Assembly: GCA_016868055.1 (NCBI GenBank)
Contig: VGHX01000005.1
Span: forward strand, 1-61,124
Source: Betaproteobacteria bacterium
Lineage (GTDB): Bacteria > Pseudomonadota > Gammaproteobacteria > Burkholderiales > Burkholderiaceae_D
Direction: 5' to 3'
DNA length: 61,124 bases
Position numbers and translations under genes: made by a program. This document shows, piece by piece, positions 19,937 through 30,457 of this stretch (the first letter of the stretch is position 1; the number at the start of each line of letters is the position of its first letter). The notes beneath the pieces are model-generated. The model had not been told where the DNA came from, made no database searches, and worked only from the letters and a program-made list of their open reading frames with translations.

Positions 19937-20200
19937 TTACGCCAGCGCCTTGATCGCAGCGGACAAGCGGCTCTTGTGGCGTGCCGCTTTGTTTTTGTGG
20001 ATGATGTTCTTGTCAGCGATACGATCAATCACCGAGACCTGGGATTGAAACGCCTGGGTTGCGCCAGCCTTGTCGCCGGCCTCGATAGCCTTGCGCACCG
20101 CCTTGATAGCAGTACGTAGCGCCGAGCGCTGGCTGGAGTTGTGAGCGTTTTGCTTAACAGCCTGACGGGCGCGCTTACGCGCCTGTGCGGAGTTTGCCAT
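19937..20200 (-). CDS. rpsT: 30S ribosomal protein S20
   Basis: Small-subunit protein S20, which binds helices of 16S rRNA early in assembly. The start is ATG at 20200 ([18 protein letters not shown]), giving 87 residues as in E. coli; the upstream extension is not S20-like. The protein is Lys/Arg-rich and helical, with the conserved [17 protein letters not shown] near the C-terminus. It diverges from murJ, a very common arrangement in proteobacteria. Confidence 0.97.
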
Positions 20201-20393: not shown

Positions 20394-21944
20394 ATGAATC
20401 TGCACAGAACGCTCGCCACGGTGTCTGGCATGACGCTGCTGTCACGCATCACTGGCCTGATCCGCGAGTTTCTGATCGCCCGAACGTTCGGTGCCTCGGT
20501 CTACACCGACGCCTTCTTCGTCGCCTTCCGCATCCCGAATTTACTGCGGCGCTTGTTTGCCGAGGGCGCATTTTCACAAGCCTTCGTGCCGATTTTGGCC
20601 GAGTACAAGAACCAGCAGGGCCGGCGAGCTACCCGTGTGCTGGCAGATCAGGTGGCAACCGTGCTGTTCTGGGCCTTACTGCTGACCTCAATCGCCGGCA
20701 TTGTGTTCGCGCCGGCGATTGTGCTGCTGATGGCAAGTGGCTTCGCATCCGACCCGGTGGCGATGTCGCTCTCGACTACCATGACGCGCATCATGTTTCC
20801 CTATATTTTGTTCATGTCACTGGTTGCGCTGGCCGGTGGCATCCTCAACACTTGGCGCGAATTTCGGGTGCCGGCATTCACACCGGTACTGCTGAATCTG
20901 TCATTCATCGCTGCTGCCTTGCTGTTGGCGCCGCTCCTGCCTCAGCCAGTCTATGCGCTTGCGATCGCCGTGTTTATTGGCGGCGTGTTGCAAGTGGGTC
21001 TGCAGATTCCCGCGCTACGCAAAATTGGCATGCTGCCCCATATCAGCGCTAACCCGATGCGTGCTTTACAAGATGAGGGCGTACGCCGCGTGCTCAAGCA
21101 AATGCTGCCGGCGACATTCGCGGTATCGGCGGCCCAGATCAGTCTGATCATCAACACCAATATCGCCTCGCACCTTGAAAACGGGAGCGTCTCGTGGCTA
21201 TCGTATGCCGACCGATTGATGGAGTTACCGACCGGCCTGCTGGGGGTCGCGCTGGGCACTATTTTGTTACCAAGCCTCTCCAAAGCAAACGCGGTGGGCG
21301 ATCTGGCGGAGTACTCAGCGCTCCTTGATTGGGGTCTTCGGCTGTGCTTTCTGTTAGCAATGCCGGCAGCGGTGGCGTTGATGATTCTGTCAGAACCCCT
21401 AACGAGTACGCTTTTTCATTATGGGAAGTTTGATCAAACCTCGGTGACCATGACAGCACGCGCCTTGGTCGCTTACGGTATCGGACTCATGGGACTGATT
21501 TTGGTCAAAATTTTAGCGCCCGGTTTCTACGCCAAACAAGATATACGGACGCCAGTCAAGATCGGCATCGGCGTACTCGTTGCAACGCAGCTGATGAACC
21601 TGATGTTCGTACCTGTCTTGGCGCATGCTGGCTTGGCCCTGTCGATTGGTTTAAGCGCCACTGTGAATGCTGCCCTTCTGTTTTTTATTTTGCGAAAGCG
21701 CGGCATCTACCAGCCGGAGGCTGGTTGGCCGTTATTCATGATCAAATTACTTGGCGCACTGTTGCTGCTGGCTGGCGTAGGTCTGTGGTCTGCCAATAAG
21801 TTTGACTGGATCGCCATGCATGCCACGCCGTGGCTAAGAGTAGGTGCGCTCTGCGGCGTGATTGCGTTATGCGTCAGCATTTACTTTGGCGCGCTGTGGG
21901 CGATGGGGTTTCGGTTGATGGATTTTCGGCGAGAATCGCACTGA
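20394..21944 (+). CDS. murJ: Lipid II flippase MurJ (MviN)
   Basis: Inner-membrane flippase of the MOP superfamily that moves lipid II across the membrane for peptidoglycan synthesis. The 516 residues should form about 14 membrane helices. The N-terminus has the conserved TLLSRITGLIREFLIA, then DAFFVAFRIPNLLRRLFAEGAFSQAFVP, which carries the Arg residues of the central cavity. The start sits just downstream of a -10 box, so the message may be leaderless. A SirB1-like gene follows 22 bp downstream. Confidence 0.97.
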   Translation: MNLHRTLATVSGMTLLSRITGLIREFLIARTFGASVYTDAFFVAFRIPNLLRRLFAEGAFSQAFVPILAEYKNQQGRRATRVLADQVATVLFWALLLTSIAGIVFAPAIVLLMASGFASDPVAMSLSTTMTRIMFPYILFMSLVALAGGILNTWREFRVPAFTPVLLNLSFIAAALLLAPLLPQPVYALAIAVFIGGVLQVGLQIPALRKIGMLPHISANPMRALQDEGVRRVLKQMLPATFAVSAAQISLIINTNIASHLENGSVSWLSYADRLMELPTGLLGVALGTILLPSLSKANAVGDLAEYSALLDWGLRLCFLLAMPAAVALMILSEPLTSTLFHYGKFDQTSVTMTARALVAYGIGLMGLILVKILAPGFYAKQDIRTPVKIGIGVLVATQLMNLMFVPVLAHAGLALSIGLSATVNAALLFFILRKRGIYQPEAGWPLFMIKLLGALLLLAGVGLWSANKFDWIAMHATPWLRVGALCGVIALCVSIYFGALWAMGFRLMDFRRESH

Positions 21945-25040: not shown

Positions 25041-25115
25041 CTCGCCGTAGTTCAATGGATAGAACGAGTGCCTCCTAAGCGCTAGATACAGGTTCGATTC
25101 CTGTCGGCGGGACCA
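25041..25115 (+). tRNA. tRNA-Arg, anticodon CCU, with encoded CCA
   Basis: Folds as a complete cloverleaf: acceptor CTCGCCG/CGGCGGG (one T-G pair), D arm GTTC-AATGGATA-GAAC, anticodon stem AGTGC/GCGCT with loop CTCCTAA (anticodon CCT), a 4-base variable loop, T arm ACAGG-TTCGATT-CCTGT, discriminator A and CCA at 25113-25115. It reads the rare Arg codon AGG. It is isolated, about 45 bp before the next protein gene. Confidence 0.96.
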
Positions 25116-25159: not shown

Positions 25160-27175
25160 ATGAGCGCCGCGCTACATTCGGCTACGATCTTCTCCAGTGC
25201 CTTCCTGCTGTTTCTTGTGCAGCCTATTGTGTCTAAACACATCCTGCCTTGGTTTGGCGGATCAGCGGCAGTATGGGCGACCTGCCTGGTTTTTTTTCAG
25301 AGTGCCCTGCTGCTGGGCTACGCTTACGCAGACCGGCTCACGCGGTGGCTCACACCCCGCAAACAAGTATGGCAGCATGCGGCGCTACTGCTGCTGAGTC
25401 TGTTGATGCTGCCAGTGCTAGCCGACGGTAGCTGGCGCCCGACGGGCAGCGAAGATCCTAGCCTGTACATACTGATGCTACTGAGTGCTACGGTAGGCTT
25501 ACCCTACTTGATGCTATCGACCACGGGGCCACTGATACAAGCGTGGGCGGCTAGCGCAGGCCATGGCGCGCAGGTGTATCGGCTGTTCTCACTGTCTAAT
25601 CTCGCATCCCTGCTCGCGTTGCTGAGTTATCCGTTTTTAATCGAGCCGTGGCTGTCTCTGCAATCCCAGTCATTGATCTGGTCGACCGTATACACCGGGT
25701 TCGTGGTCTTGTGCGCGAGCTCTGGCCTGATCCTCAGCCGACAGCACAAGCCTGCTTCCCAGCCTATGAGCCAGGCAGCTGAAGATCCGCCACCGACCGT
25801 CAAGCAACAGGCTGTATGGCTCTCACTTGCTGCATTGAGTGCGTGGCTACTGCTGGCAGTCACCAATCACATCACACAGAATATCGCTGCCATTCCTTTT
25901 TTATGGATATTGCCGCTCACACTGTATCTGCTAAGTTTCGTGCTCTGTTTCGAGAGCGATCGCTGGTACCGGCGTCGCTGGTGGTTGCCGGTAATGGTGG
26001 TCTTGATCTGTACCGCCGCCTACGGATTACAAGATAACAAACTAGGGCTAAATATTGTCTGGGCGATTCCGCTTTATTGCGGCACCTTGTTGGTTGCCAC
26101 CATGTTCTTGCATGGCGAACTCGCCGCGCTCCGTCCGTCGCCGCGTCACCTGACTCGCTTCTATCTTGCGCTATCGCTTGGCGGCGCGATAGGCGGCGCC
26201 TTGGTTGGCTTATTAGCACCACGTGTATTACCCGCCTACTACGAGCTGGGCATTGGTTTAGTGCTGACAGGTTTGTTAGCCGCCTGGATCATGCGAGACA
26301 GAAAAATCACGCTTGCGATTGGTATGCTACTGGGAGCGTTTTGTGCGCTGATGCTATGGCGACAGGTACAAGCCGACCTCAACTCCGCGCATCTGATGAC
26401 CCGTAATTTTTATGGACGTCTACTGGTACGCGATATCCCTTCCGCTACGCCTACCATCACGGTGCGACGTCTGCTACACGGCGCCATCTTGCACGGCGAA
26501 GAGTATTTGTCTGGCCCGAACCGCAACAAGCCCACCACCTACTATGGCATCAGCTCGGGTATCGGTCGCTTGCTTGCCGTACCGGATACGATTGGTCAGC
26601 GCGTCGTCGGTGTAGTCGGGCTCGGCACCGGCACGCTTGCCGCCTTCGGTGAACACGGCGATCGGTTCCGGTTTTATGACATTGATCCTGCCGTGATTCA
26701 TATTGCGCAAACCGAGTTCGGTTACCTGCGCAATAGCCACGCCGTAATCGAAACCGTGCTCGGCGATGCCAGGCTTAATCTCGAGCGCGAAACACCCAAC
26801 CGGTTTGATGTGCTGGCAATCGATGCGTTCTCAGGTGACTCTATTCCAGTGCATCTGATCACGCGGGAAGCCATGGCGCTTTACCGCAAGCACATGAAAC
26901 CGGACGGCGTGATCGCCTTTCACGTATCTAATCGGTACCTTGCGCTAGCACCTGTTGTCGAGAAACTGGCTGAAGACGCTGGCATGCATGCCATGCTGAT
27001 TTCCGACAATCAGCCCGCCAGCCCTCTCCTCACAACGGATTGGGTACTGGTGGCCAGTACCCGCGAGGCGCTCATGCAACCCTCGCTGCTCAGGGTAGCG
27101 AAAAAACCGCCGATGATCGACGGTCTACGCGCATGGACCGATGACAGCAATAATTTGTTCAAGGTGCTGAAGTAA
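25160..27175 (+). CDS. Membrane protein fused to a spermidine-synthase-like domain
   Basis: A 671-residue two-part protein. About residues 1-390 contain ten or more hydrophobic segments (SAFLLFLVQPIVSKHILPWFGGSAAVWATCLVFFQ is typical of the family). About 410-671 form a Rossmann-type aminopropyltransferase fold: VGVVGLGTGTLAAFGEHGD is the nucleotide-binding loop, YDIDPAVI the acidic strand end, and DAFSGDSIPVHLITREA the conserved region. Members are often annotated as fused MFS/spermidine synthase; most lack proof of polyamine synthesis and the donor substrate is unknown. The last codons begin a series of five degenerate repeats (27143-27307). Confidence 0.85.
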   Translation: MSAALHSATIFSSAFLLFLVQPIVSKHILPWFGGSAAVWATCLVFFQSALLLGYAYADRLTRWLTPRKQVWQHAALLLLSLLMLPVLADGSWRPTGSEDPSLYILMLLSATVGLPYLMLSTTGPLIQAWAASAGHGAQVYRLFSLSNLASLLALLSYPFLIEPWLSLQSQSLIWSTVYTGFVVLCASSGLILSRQHKPASQPMSQAAEDPPPTVKQQAVWLSLAALSAWLLLAVTNHITQNIAAIPFLWILPLTLYLLSFVLCFESDRWYRRRWWLPVMVVLICTAAYGLQDNKLGLNIVWAIPLYCGTLLVATMFLHGELAALRPSPRHLTRFYLALSLGGAIGGALVGLLAPRVLPAYYELGIGLVLTGLLAAWIMRDRKITLAIGMLLGAFCALMLWRQVQADLNSAHLMTRNFYGRLLVRDIPSATPTITVRRLLHGAILHGEEYLSGPNRNKPTTYYGISSGIGRLLAVPDTIGQRVVGVVGLGTGTLAAFGEHGDRFRFYDIDPAVIHIAQTEFGYLRNSHAVIETVLGDARLNLERETPNRFDVLAIDAFSGDSIPVHLITREAMALYRKHMKPDGVIAFHVSNRYLALAPVVEKLAEDAGMHAMLISDNQPASPLLTTDWVLVASTREALMQPSLLRVAKKPPMIDGLRAWTDDSNNLFKVLK

Positions 27176-27307
27176 GGGCAGCAATTGTTTAAGTGCTGGA
27201 GTAAAGACAGGAATAACTTGTTTAAGTGCTGAAGTAATGCAAGCAAGAACTTCTTTTAAGATTCTGAAGTTAGTGAAGCAATAACTTGTTCAAGGTCTTG
27301 AAGACAA
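27143..27307 (+). repeat. Five degenerate tandem copies of the 3' end of the spermidine-synthase fusion gene
   Basis: Unit 1 (27143-27176) is the coding end: the codons for DSNNLFKVLK plus the stop. Four further copies of about 29-36 bp follow at 27177-27205, 27206-27238, 27239-27274 and 27275-27307, each recognisable by a run like AATAACTTGTTTAAG followed by a CTGAAGTAA-like end. Similarity decays unevenly. No hairpin terminator is visible before the convergent cupin gene. Confidence 0.88.
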
Positions 27308-27329
27308 TTGCCTTTACAAAGGTGAATCA

Positions 27330-27821
27330 TCACTTCAGCCTGCGTGGTTTACCGAAGCTGCCCTCTTTGGGAAACAAAAACGTTGTCTTGCTGGGCCCCA
27401 TACCGACGATTTGTACCATCGCACCTTCATCACCCGCAGAGCCATCGTAGTGCACAGCACCTGCTTTGTGGAACATGTAGGTGCCGGTCTTGAGTGGCGT
27501 GGTGGCTTTCGGATCCCAGCTATCGTCAGTGCCCGCGTTCCATGTTCCCTGAACCACAATCACGTGCCTGTCTTCGCCATGAAAATGCGGAGAGCTCATC
27601 ACACCCGGCGGAAAATAGGCGCGGATCACATACATCCCGGGTTTGCTCGGATCACCAAACACGACAGCCATTTTTGCACCCGCGTCTGCCTCTTTCCATT
27701 CGATTTTTTCAGTGGGCATAATCAGAAAATCTGCCTCGCTCGGCGCCGAGAAACTAGGTGCAGTAACCAGCGCCGATGCTAGCAGCAACGGCCGCAGTGA
27801 AACCAAAAAATTTGCGCGCAT
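27330..27821 (-). CDS. Secreted cupin-domain protein
   Basis: A 163-residue protein with a cleavable signal peptide (about residues 1-25, ending SFSA), so it is probably periplasmic. The body is one cupin beta-barrel: HFHGEDRHVIVVQGTW supplies the metal-binding His pair and Glu-type positions of motif 1, and the second motif lies around TYMFHKAGAVHYDGSA. The Cys-free, Lys-rich end suggests nothing further. Substrate unknown. It has its own AT-rich promoter region with a 14-bp palindrome. Confidence 0.82.
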   Translation of the reverse strand: MRANFLVSLRPLLLASALVTAPSFSAPSEADFLIMPTEKIEWKEADAGAKMAVVFGDPSKPGMYVIRAYFPPGVMSSPHFHGEDRHVIVVQGTWNAGTDDSWDPKATTPLKTGTYMFHKAGAVHYDGSAGDEGAMVQIVGMGPSKTTFLFPKEGSFGKPRRLK

Positions 27822-27846
27822 TTGTACCCCCTATTGAAAGTTTTAC

Positions 27847-27860
27847 TAATAAATTTATTA
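27847..27860. promoter_or_regulatory. Perfect 14-bp AT palindrome upstream of the cupin gene
   Basis: TAATAAATTTATTA is its own reverse complement and ends 26 bp before the cupin start codon, within an AT-rich stretch much lower in GC than its surroundings. Candidate operator or promoter element; no regulator gene is adjacent. Confidence 0.4.
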
Positions 27861-27985
27861 CATGATTATGATGGACGATAGCACATGGGGTATTTGGCAA
27901 ATAATGAAAAAACTTTGCCCGGCACAGGCATAATGGCGAAAATCAAAACTCCGCTGCAGCACTTCCATACATAAAAGGAATCCCA

Positions 27986-28840
27986 ATGAAACTGGTTCGC
28001 TACGGTCGCCTTGGCCACGAAAAACCTGGAATGATTGACGCCGAAGGCAAGCTCAGAGACCTGTCATCGATTATTGACGATATCGGCCCGACGCAGCTAT
28101 CGGACAAATCACTCGCCAAGTTAGCGCGCATTAAGCCAGCTAATTTGCCGCTGGTGCGGGGCAAACCGCGCTACGGTGTGCCGGTTTCCGGCATCGGCAA
28201 GATCGTGGCGATCGGCCTCAACTACGCCGACCATGCAAAAGAATCCGGCATGCGCATCCCCACCGAGCCGATTGTGTTCATGAAGGCCATCACCTGTTTG
28301 AACGGCCCGAACGACGAGGTCATGCTACCCAAGGAAGTCACCAAGGCAGACTGGGAAGTTGAGCTTGGTGTCGTGATTGGCGCCAAGGCCCAATATGTCA
28401 GCGAGCGACAGGCGCTGTCGTATATCGCTGGGTATTGCGTGGTGAATGATGTATCCGAGCGTGCGTTCCAGGCCGAGCGTGGCGGCACTTGGGATAAAGG
28501 CAAGGGCTGTGACACTTTCGGGCCGGTGGGGCCTTGGTTAGTGACGCGTGATGAAATCGCCAACCCGCAACGGCTGAATCTTTGGCTAGATGTGAACGGC
28601 GAGCGGCGCCAAACTGGCAACACACGAACCATGATCTTCCCGGTCGCTAAATTAGTCAGCTACGTGAGTCGTTTCATGACGCTAATGCCCGGCGATGTGA
28701 TCGCAACGGGTACCCCACCGGGGGTCGGGATGGGCATGCAGCCGCCGCAGTTTCTCGCACCCGGTGATGAGATGCGACTCGGTATTGACGGCTTGGGCGA
28801 GCAGCATCAGCAAGTGATTGCCTATCGCAAGTCTCGATAA
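27986..28840 (+). CDS. Fumarylacetoacetate hydrolase family protein
   Basis: A 284-residue metal-dependent hydrolase or lyase of the FAH family. The C-terminal catalytic domain has VAIGLNYADHAKESG, the acidic metal site in DWEVELGVVIG, DVSERAFQ, and GDVIATGTPPGVGMG near the end. Start ATG with AAGGAA upstream. Relatives cleave C-C bonds of acylpyruvates such as fumarylpyruvate, or act as 5-carboxymethyl-2-hydroxymuconate or ureidoglycolate enzymes. The convergent neighbour is a zeta-class GST like maleylpyruvate/maleylacetoacetate isomerase, so a role in gentisate or tyrosine breakdown is plausible but not shown. The stop codon is inside the first unit of a 14-bp repeat series. Confidence 0.88.
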   Translation: MKLVRYGRLGHEKPGMIDAEGKLRDLSSIIDDIGPTQLSDKSLAKLARIKPANLPLVRGKPRYGVPVSGIGKIVAIGLNYADHAKESGMRIPTEPIVFMKAITCLNGPNDEVMLPKEVTKADWEVELGVVIGAKAQYVSERQALSYIAGYCVVNDVSERAFQAERGGTWDKGKGCDTFGPVGPWLVTRDEIANPQRLNLWLDVNGERRQTGNTRTMIFPVAKLVSYVSRFMTLMPGDVIATGTPPGVGMGMQPPQFLAPGDEMRLGIDGLGEQHQQVIAYRKSR

Positions 28841-29006
28841 CCAATCATCGATAACCAATCATCGATAACCAATCATCGATAACCAAGCATTGATAACCAA
28901 GCGCTGATATCCAAGCGCTGATATCCAATAAAACCTAAGCTCAACGCGATCGTCGAGCCAAGATGATCAAGCCAAGATGATCAAGCCAAGATAATCGAGG
29001 CTAAAT
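28834..29006 (+). repeat. 14-bp-period tandem array starting in the last codons of the FAH-family gene
   Basis: The first unit TCGATAACCAATCA contains the final codon base, Arg-stop junction and 7 following bases. Units 1-3 are identical (28834-28875), the 4th differs at one base, and later ones diverge. Using the phase that begins AACC at 28839, twelve consecutive 14-bp units run to 29006, each ending in GAT or a variant in most cases; a second well-conserved sub-block (GATCAAGCCAAGAT twice) is at 28965-28992. The array fills the spacer before the convergent maiA gene. Confidence 0.92.
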
Positions 29007-29062
29007 AAAAAGTTGGATGCGCAGAGATTGTCACGCGCGCGAGGCTCGCATGCGCAACGCCC

Positions 29063-29710
29063 TTACTCTGCATCAGCTTGCTGCGCGGGCGAGGCCCTGG
29101 CAAACGCGTCCAACTGCAGGCACGCCTGGTTAATACGCAAGATCGTTGGCAGACCCGATAAATCGCACTGCATGCGTTGGCCGTTGGCTACCTGGGGAAT
29201 CAGTACACAATCGGCATAGCCTGGGGTGTCACCGAAGCAGAATTCACCCACGCGAGGATCGCTCGCCAGCACACGCTCGATACTTGCGAGACCTTGCTCG
29301 ACCCAATGCCGATACCAACGGTTCTTGTTATCCTCAGACACGCCCATCTCGTGCTGCAGGTAACGCAGCACACGCAAATTATCGATCGGATGAATATCGC
29401 AAGCGATTGATAGCGCAAGACTGCGTACCCATGCCCGATCATCAGCATGAGGCGGAAGCAAGGCTGGGGCTGGATGGGCCTCCTCCAGATACTCCATGAT
29501 GGCGAGCGACTGGTTTAGAACCATGCCGTCCGGTAGCTGCAGCGAAGGCACCAGCGCATCTGCATTCAGCTTACGATATTCCGGTAAAAACTGCTCGCCG
29601 CCGTCTTTGAGCAGGTGAACCGGAACGGTCTCATAAGACAAGCCCTTCAAGTTGAGCGCGATTCGGACCCGGTAAGAGGCCGAGCTACGAAAGTAACTAA
29701 ATAGTTTCAT
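29063..29710 (-). CDS. maiA: Maleylacetoacetate/maleylpyruvate isomerase (zeta-class glutathione transferase)
   Basis: A 215-residue glutathione-dependent isomerase converting maleylacetoacetate to fumarylacetoacetate (tyrosine pathway) or maleylpyruvate to fumarylpyruvate (gentisate pathway). The zeta-class signature FRSSASYRVRIALNLKG at about 7-23 contains the active-site Ser pair, the thioredoxin-like part continues with VPSLQLPDG and NQSLAIMEYL, and the C-terminal all-helical part contains GDTPGYADCVLIPQV. The normal end is slightly short. Its neighbour across the repeat array is an FAH-family hydrolase, the next enzyme in either pathway. Confidence 0.9.
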   Translation of the reverse strand: MKLFSYFRSSASYRVRIALNLKGLSYETVPVHLLKDGGEQFLPEYRKLNADALVPSLQLPDGMVLNQSLAIMEYLEEAHPAPALLPPHADDRAWVRSLALSIACDIHPIDNLRVLRYLQHEMGVSEDNKNRWYRHWVEQGLASIERVLASDPRVGEFCFGDTPGYADCVLIPQVANGQRMQCDLSGLPTILRINQACLQLDAFARASPAQQADAE

Positions 29711-29735
29711 GTGTCACTGCAAGGTGGTGATGACA

Positions 29736-30457
<722 letters not shown>

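What the first reader, a model, noticed from the sequence alone, without database searches (positions are those of the whole stretch)
28834..29006. A gene stop codon that seeds a twelve-unit 14-bp array
Seen in the sequence: the final bases and stop of the FAH-family gene form unit one of a tandem array whose 14-bp phase holds for twelve units (phase AACC from 28839). Units 1-3 are identical, unit 4 differs once, and divergence rises away from the gene, with a second local re-expansion (GATCAAGCCAAGAT twice) at 28965-28992. The period is not a multiple of three, so it is non-coding. The gradient suggests repeated duplication at the gene end with older copies pushed outward.
Basis: partly seen in the sequence, partly recalled or inferred. 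Interest (0 to 1): 0.75.

Follow-up and report, generated by a model that had tools for sequence, protein, structure and literature searches.

The report
Young tandem-repeat array after gene end
A short DNA repeat has multiplied just after a bacterial gene's stop signal since this species split from its closest relative in the set; it is one of many such repeats in this genome and looks like ordinary copying slippage in a place where extra DNA does little harm.

Summary
The repeat is real but overstated. A 14-bp array starts at the last codon of a FAH-family gene and runs 28834-28929 (about 6.7 units). A second, in-phase 14-bp array of about 3 units lies at 28956-28996. The 42 bp called units 7-9 have no 14-bp periodicity, so there are not twelve units. 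Unit 4 differs from unit 1 at two sites, not one.

The closest relative in the set (G008, protein 98% identical) has no array: the two convergent genes lie 16 bp apart there and 222 bp apart here. The insert is lineage-specific.

It is not alone. The sampled parts of G000 and G008 hold 59 intergenic arrays in 1.38 Mb, against 5 in 0.58 Mb of other genus members and 9 in 0.76 Mb of named loci. They sit near stop codons (21 of 59 within 10 bp, null 9.9) and between convergent genes (19 of 59, null 7.5).

Best reading: slippage producing short-lived minisatellites, kept mostly where selection tolerates extra DNA.

The parts
27986..28840 (+). FAH-family gene (PF01557) whose last codon and stop form part of the first unit of the array
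   Evidence: ORF; Pfam 2.9e-72
28834..28929 (.). main 14-bp tandem array, about 6.7 units, unit AACCAATCATCGAT
   Evidence: TRF; unit comparison; absent from 4 nearest relatives
28930..28955 (.). non-periodic gap between the two sub-arrays; a hairpin here (28938-28959, - strand) is terminator-like for the GST gene but has a weak U tract
   Evidence: lag-14 3 of 12; scan (4 sites found in 26900-29800, 3.1 in shuffles); fold -16.2 kcal/mol, z -2.77
28956..28996 (.). second 14-bp array, about 3 units, in phase with the first
   Evidence: TRF
28997..29062 (.). rest of the lineage-specific intergenic segment, outside the TRF arrays, origin unknown
   Evidence: alignment
29063..29710 (-). GST-family gene convergent with FAH
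   Evidence: ORF; Pfam GST_N and GST_C
27141..27294 (.). another stop-straddling array in the same window: about 33-bp unit resembling the last codons and stop of the ORF 25160-27175, again between convergent genes
   Evidence: TRF; sequence; interval between matched flanks 177 bp here, 44 bp in G008

Best explanation
The array is a young intergenic minisatellite. After this lineage split from G008, a short duplication straddling the end of the FAH gene arose in a spacer of about 16-19 bp between two convergent genes. Slipped-strand copying or unequal exchange multiplied it, and a second burst of copying made the in-phase sub-array. Because the copies land after the intact stop codon and between two gene ends, where no promoter is expected, selection tolerates them. 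The same process runs across the genome in this two-species clade at about five times the rate seen in other genus members sampled. The position bias (convergent > same-strand > divergent, close to stops) is mainly the footprint of that tolerance. Shown: presence, lineage-specific gain, excess in the sampled genome, position bias. Inferred: slippage as the copying step, neutrality, and tolerance as the cause of the bias.
For: The four nearest relatives lack the array while both flanking genes stay in place. G000 plus G008 hold 59 intergenic arrays in 1,379,382 bases; other genus members 5 in 576,067 (P 2.4e-5); 80 named loci 9 in 762,868 (P 3.2e-5). Within 10 bp of a stop: 21 of 59, null 9.9; convergent: 19 of 59, null 7.5; 0 of 2000 simulations reach either. 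Divergent: 4 of 59, null 10.8. Start overlap: 4, null 8.8. Density per kb: convergent 0.87, same strand 0.32, divergent 0.13; all 44 arrays lying at least 90% inside called genes have periods divisible by 3, against 30 of 59 intergenic, as selection would give. This array's unit occurs nowhere else in its genome, and the stop-proximal arrays displayed have different units. Of 12 G000 array rows with both flanks held in G008, 9 have a longer interval in G000 by 12-239 bp, 2 are equal, 1 is shorter. Stop proximity also holds in the 80 named loci (4 of 9, null 1.0, P 0.013). A different 14-bp repeat (2.1 copies) overlaps the stop of the same gene in G002 (L016).
Against: Tolerance does not explain why this clade has several times more arrays; no cause was found, since mutS, mutL, recJ and xseA are present without internal stops in G000. 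The 80 named loci show no convergent bias (1 of 9, null 1.0), though 9 is few. Overlap with the stop itself is not significant in G000 alone (9 of 38, null 5.9, P 0.12). Within same-strand regions the lean to stops is weak (19 nearer stop, 10 nearer start, 2 ties, P 0.14). The excess shrinks to twofold at TRF score 40, and at score 100 G008 (7.4 per Mb) is near other genus members (5.2). Bias from transcription at gene ends would look the same.
Confidence: 0.74

Rival explanations
1. Gene ends are mutational hot spots: stalled or colliding RNA polymerases at convergent 3' ends make R-loops or supercoil stress, and repair there produces the tandem duplications.
For: Density rises with the number of gene 3' ends in a region: 0.13, 0.32 and 0.87 per kb for none, one and two. 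Two neighbouring convergent pairs in this window each have a longer, array-bearing spacer than in G008.
Against: The same ordering is expected from loss of promoter constraint. No preference for the gene-side half of arrays. No expression data.
Confidence: 0.15
2. The array has a function as a 3' transcript end: a terminator or RNA-stabilising structure for the two convergent genes.
For: The array stretches fold better than shuffles (z -3.4 to -5.3 for the three longer pieces, both strands) and a terminator-like hairpin lies between the sub-arrays.
Against: Shuffles destroy the periodicity, which may alone favour folding. Against arrays built from shuffled units, 54 units average z -0.04 and this one -1.2 (DNA parameters if the module offered them). 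Ten relatives manage with 16-28 bp there. The hairpin's U tract is weak and such hits are expected by chance.
Confidence: 0.07
3. The array is an assembly artefact of a draft, probably metagenome-derived, genome.
For: The assembly does break at arrays: 6 of 46 contig ends lie within 150 bp of one, 0.52 expected, so copy number may be misjudged.
Against: Units have diverged step by step and the flanking genes are syntenic with relatives. The separate assembly of the sister species shows the same kind of arrays elsewhere.
Confidence: 0.04

Closest known systems
VNTR/minisatellite between rnc and fpg1 in the Mycobacterium tuberculosis complex (PMC2734929; search listing and found passages seen)
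   Same: A spacer of 1 to 54 bp in the relatives shown has grown to 279-358 bp of direct repeats in one lineage.
   Different: There the repeats end at a start codon and begin 40 bp after the stop, and length was linked to expression; here the genes converge and the array begins at the stop.
Tandem repeats of archaeal Borg elements (PMC9879509; search listing and found passages seen)
   Same: Pervasive, young, independently arising repeats; [quoted passage not shown]
   Different: Borg repeats are described as perfect and A-enriched, 43-65% lie in ORFs, and they belong to extrachromosomal elements.
Intergenic TAACTGA repeats of marine Beggiatoaceae (PMC4679880; search listing and found passages seen)
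   Same: Many intergenic direct-repeat sets in one genome; [quoted passage not shown] in some Bacteroidetes with such repeats, relatives have shorter spacers without them.
   Different: One shared 7-bp sequence, mostly just before start codons.
Burkholderia pseudomallei tandem repeats (PMC1853098; search listing and found passages seen)
   Same: Repeats mostly intergenic; genus of the Burkholderiales (recalled).
   Different: Motifs mostly of 6-9 bp, 36.3% of arrays partly copied elsewhere in the genome; the main text holds no mention of 'stop codon'.

Membership tests
Intergenic minisatellite (tandem array of roughly 10-100 bp units; definition recalled) | Head-to-tail copies beyond chance | tested here: met
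   TRF; 0 of 5000 shuffles
Intergenic minisatellite (tandem array of roughly 10-100 bp units; definition recalled) | Gain or loss between close relatives | tested here: met
   Absent from G008, G015, G020, G004
VNTR (variable number tandem repeat) | Copy number varies among strains of one species | not testable with these tools
   One genome per species held; no reads
Dispersed repeat family (REP/BIME, MIRU, TAACTGA type) | Same unit at many places in the genome | tested here: not met
   22-base pattern with up to 3 mismatches hits only this array (4 places); 401-bp query hits only itself
Phase-variable contingency repeat | Lies in a coding frame or promoter so that copy number switches expression | tested here: not met
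   Lies after the stop, between convergent genes; promoter activity itself not tested
Rho-independent terminator | G+C-rich stem followed by a U tract | tested here: inconclusive
   One candidate on the - strand at 28938-28959, weak tract; 4 sites found in 26900-29800 against 3.1 in shuffles

The most novel reading that the evidence does not exclude
The clade of G000 and G008 carries a heritable change in DNA copying or transcription termination that turns gene 3' ends into factories of tandem repeats, so that spacers between convergent genes are renewed between sister species.
Probability: 0.15. Interest if true: 0.6.

Novelty: new member of a known kind. Interest (0 to 1): 0.33.

Why it matters
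One array is ordinary. The set is more useful: two sister species with many arrays, each largely with its own unit and datable against a relative, form a natural experiment on where a bacterium tolerates new DNA and on how tandem repeats begin. If the excess has a genetic cause in this clade, it would point to a factor that holds such expansions down in other bacteria.

Tried and rejected
Twelve-unit array: rejected, since units 7-9 are not periodic. Growth only from the gene end: not general. Mobile or dispersed element: no second copy in the own genome or in the loci held. Known RNA family at the array: none; the only Rfam match in the five sources given is a tRNA at window 25041-25112. Mismatch-repair loss: mutS and mutL present, as are recJ and xseA; other repair genes were not tested. 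Palindromic units as the cause: no excess (54 units, mean z -0.04). Nine of 10 paper searches ran. By their titles, none of the papers listed treats stop-seeded arrays across a bacterial genome, but lists were cut and the library holds only openly licensed papers. Superseded results: my gene model failed on G008 (coding 3.7%), replaced; a cached table could be reused between sets, replaced. In one search I printed the bases after each match without regard to strand, so for the eight reverse-strand genus loci it shows the wrong end; one search repeats it with the strand taken into account. Some arrays counted as intergenic probably lie in genes that my home-made gene caller missed (for example window 20066-20110 and L053+ 21096-21199, whose intervals are the same length in G008).

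Full report
What is there. The FAH-family gene (27986-28840, PF01557) ends in CGA TAA. From 28834 the sequence repeats every 14 bp to 28929. After that the period is lost: lag-14 matches are 9 of 28 in units 7-9. It returns in the same phase at 28956-28996 as GATCAAGCCAAGAT copies. Over the whole stretch lag-14 matches are 120 of 159, above each of 5000 shuffles (maximum 66). So the repeat is real, but it is two arrays of about 6.7 and 3 units with 26 bp between them, not one of twelve. Whether the second is a re-expanded part of the first is open: 9 of 14 sites agree with unit 5 in register (P 0.006), but the best of all rotations and strands is not unusual (P 0.077).

How old it is. Of 37 genomes searched, the window's own included, 34 have a match to the FAH protein. 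The nearest, G008, is 98% identical in protein. There and in G015, G020 and G004 the FAH stop and the end of the convergent GST-family gene are 16, 19, 19 and 18 bp apart, with no array; in the window they are 222 bp apart. Of the 18 genus loci examined, the window's included, ten others have a reverse-strand gene 16-28 bp after the FAH stop; the remaining seven have longer spacers or no next gene called. TRF at score 40 finds arrays within 300 bp after the stop in two of the other 17: a 14-bp one of 2.1 copies with a different unit overlapping the stop in L016 (G002), and a 17-bp one of 1.9 copies 37 bp past the stop in L019 (G007). The FAH and GST genes are adjacent in the four nearest relatives, so the extra 200-odd bases arose in this lineage or were lost in the others; gain here is the simpler reading. 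Of the 222 bp, 130 lie in the two TRF arrays; the other 92 (28930-28955 and 28997-29062) are unexplained.

Direction of growth. All four relatives end the gene in CGATAA. But the outer units share derived changes with one another, so they too were copied. Tested over the 13 arrays within 30 bp of a stop that are long enough to split (at least 3.3 units, period up to 70), this one included, the gene-side half is purer in 5, the far half in 7, with 1 tie. Growth from the gene outward is not a rule.

It is one of many. In the same window a 33-bp array at 27141-27294 repeats the last codons and stop of the previous gene, again between convergent genes, and again the interval between matched flanks is shorter in G008 (44 bp against 177). 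I sampled 842,069 of 2,709,013 bases of this genome (the window, which is contig 5, plus up to the first 40 kb of contigs 1-4 and 6-21) and 537,313 bases of G008. With a simple gene caller and TRF score 50 they hold 38 and 21 intergenic arrays, 45.1 and 39.1 per Mb. Other genus members sampled (G015, G004, G020, G013, G002, G001, G005, G019) hold 5 in 576,067 bases. Two of these 5, and two of the 38 in G000, belong to a dispersed repeat family. Eighty named loci around relatives of the gene, one of them from this genus, hold 9 in 762,868. The excess is significant against both (P 2.4e-5 and 3.2e-5) and holds at score 60 (35.6 and 29.8 against 5.2 and 9.2 per Mb). At score 100 G000 stays high (21.4 against 5.2 and 2.6) while G008 is near the rest (7.4). 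At score 40 the contrast is about twofold. G035, from another family, has 3 in 120,000 bases (25 per Mb), so the background is not uniform. The 80 loci come from one gene neighbourhood and are not a random sample, and many stretches were taken from the starts of contigs.

Where they sit. Placing the same arrays at random in intergenic DNA 2000 times, 21 of 59 lie within 10 bp of a stop (null 9.9) and 19 of 59 between convergent genes (null 7.5); no simulation reaches either. Divergent regions hold 4 (null 10.8), and 4 overlap a start codon (null 8.8). Stop codon overlap is 15 (null 7.9, reached by 16 of 2000), but in G000 alone it is 9 against 5.9 (P 0.12). The 80 named loci show stop proximity too (4 of 9 against 1.0, P 0.013) but no convergent bias (1 of 9 against 1.0), so stop proximity looks general while the convergent bias is shown only for this clade. 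Density per kb is 0.87, 0.32 and 0.13 in convergent, same-strand and divergent regions; in same-strand regions 19 arrays lie nearer a stop, 10 nearer a start, 2 tie (P 0.14). All 44 arrays lying at least 90% inside called genes have periods divisible by three. This is what selection on where new DNA is tolerated would give. A mutational bias tied to transcription ends would give the same order, and I cannot separate the two.

Turnover. For 12 of 38 G000 array rows both flanks are held in my G008 sample. In 9 of the 12 (8 distinct intergenic regions) the interval between matched flanks is longer in G000 by 12-239 bp; in 2 it is equal, probably missed coding repeats; in 1 it is shorter. The other 26 could not be compared. 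One spacer has different arrays in the two species (15 bp at L045+ 28151-28241, 8 bp at L060 4297-4334), which suggests independent origins.

Assembly. Six of 46 contig ends examined lie within 150 bp of an array, 0.52 expected (P 1.8e-5). Arrays therefore seem to break this assembly, and the arrays seen may be the short ones. This one is bridged and its units differ, so an artefact is unlikely, but copy number needs long reads.

Cause and function. mutS, mutL, recJ and xseA are present without internal stops in G000, so the excess has no cause found here. The array folds better than shuffles as RNA, but that may follow from periodicity: against arrays of shuffled units it is unremarkable. A terminator-like hairpin on the - strand at 28938-28959 is of a kind expected by chance. 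I see no ground for a function.

Compared with what is known. Growth of a tiny spacer into a repeat array in one lineage is known for rnc-fpg1 in the tuberculosis complex (PMC2734929), and young, independently arising repeats, some starting inside an ORF end, are known in Borg elements (PMC9879509). The Beggiatoaceae TAACTGA sets (PMC4679880) share one sequence and sit mostly before starts. I saw search listings and found passages of these, not whole papers. This is a new member of a known kind; the clade-wide excess is the part worth a follow-up.

One search corrected the strand handling and added the L019 array; the count of array bases was corrected to 130 of 222.

Noticed in passing
window 27141-27294: A 33-bp array whose unit resembles the last codons and stop of the gene before it; the outermost unit is more gene-like at one site group than the middle ones.
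   Followed up: yes
L048:1-300, L087:9000-9310, L222:12456-12748, L223:11741-12023: A dispersed repeat family of about 105-bp units, often near stop codons, found in the samples of G000 (7), G008 (5), G020 (2) and G004 (2) but not in those of G015, G013, four other genus members or 80 named loci; no Rfam match in these four loci.
   Followed up: partly
contig ends C4, C9, C10, C14 and C17 (starts) and C9 (end) of G000: Contigs end near tandem arrays more often than expected (6 of 46 ends, 0.52 expected), so the true arrays may be longer than assembled.
   Followed up: yes
sampled intergenic arrays of G000: Periods pile up at 14 and 15 bp (14 of 38 arrays); G008 has 4 of 21. TRF's score floor disfavours short units with few copies, so the peak is not proven.
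   Followed up: no
L016:2353-2382 (G002): A different 14-bp repeat (2.1 copies, score 46) overlaps the stop of the same FAH gene in a more distant genus member.
   Followed up: partly
window 25160-27175: A 671-residue ORF with no Pfam match at 0.001; by eye a membrane half followed by a spermidine-synthase-like half (recalled, not tested).
   Followed up: no
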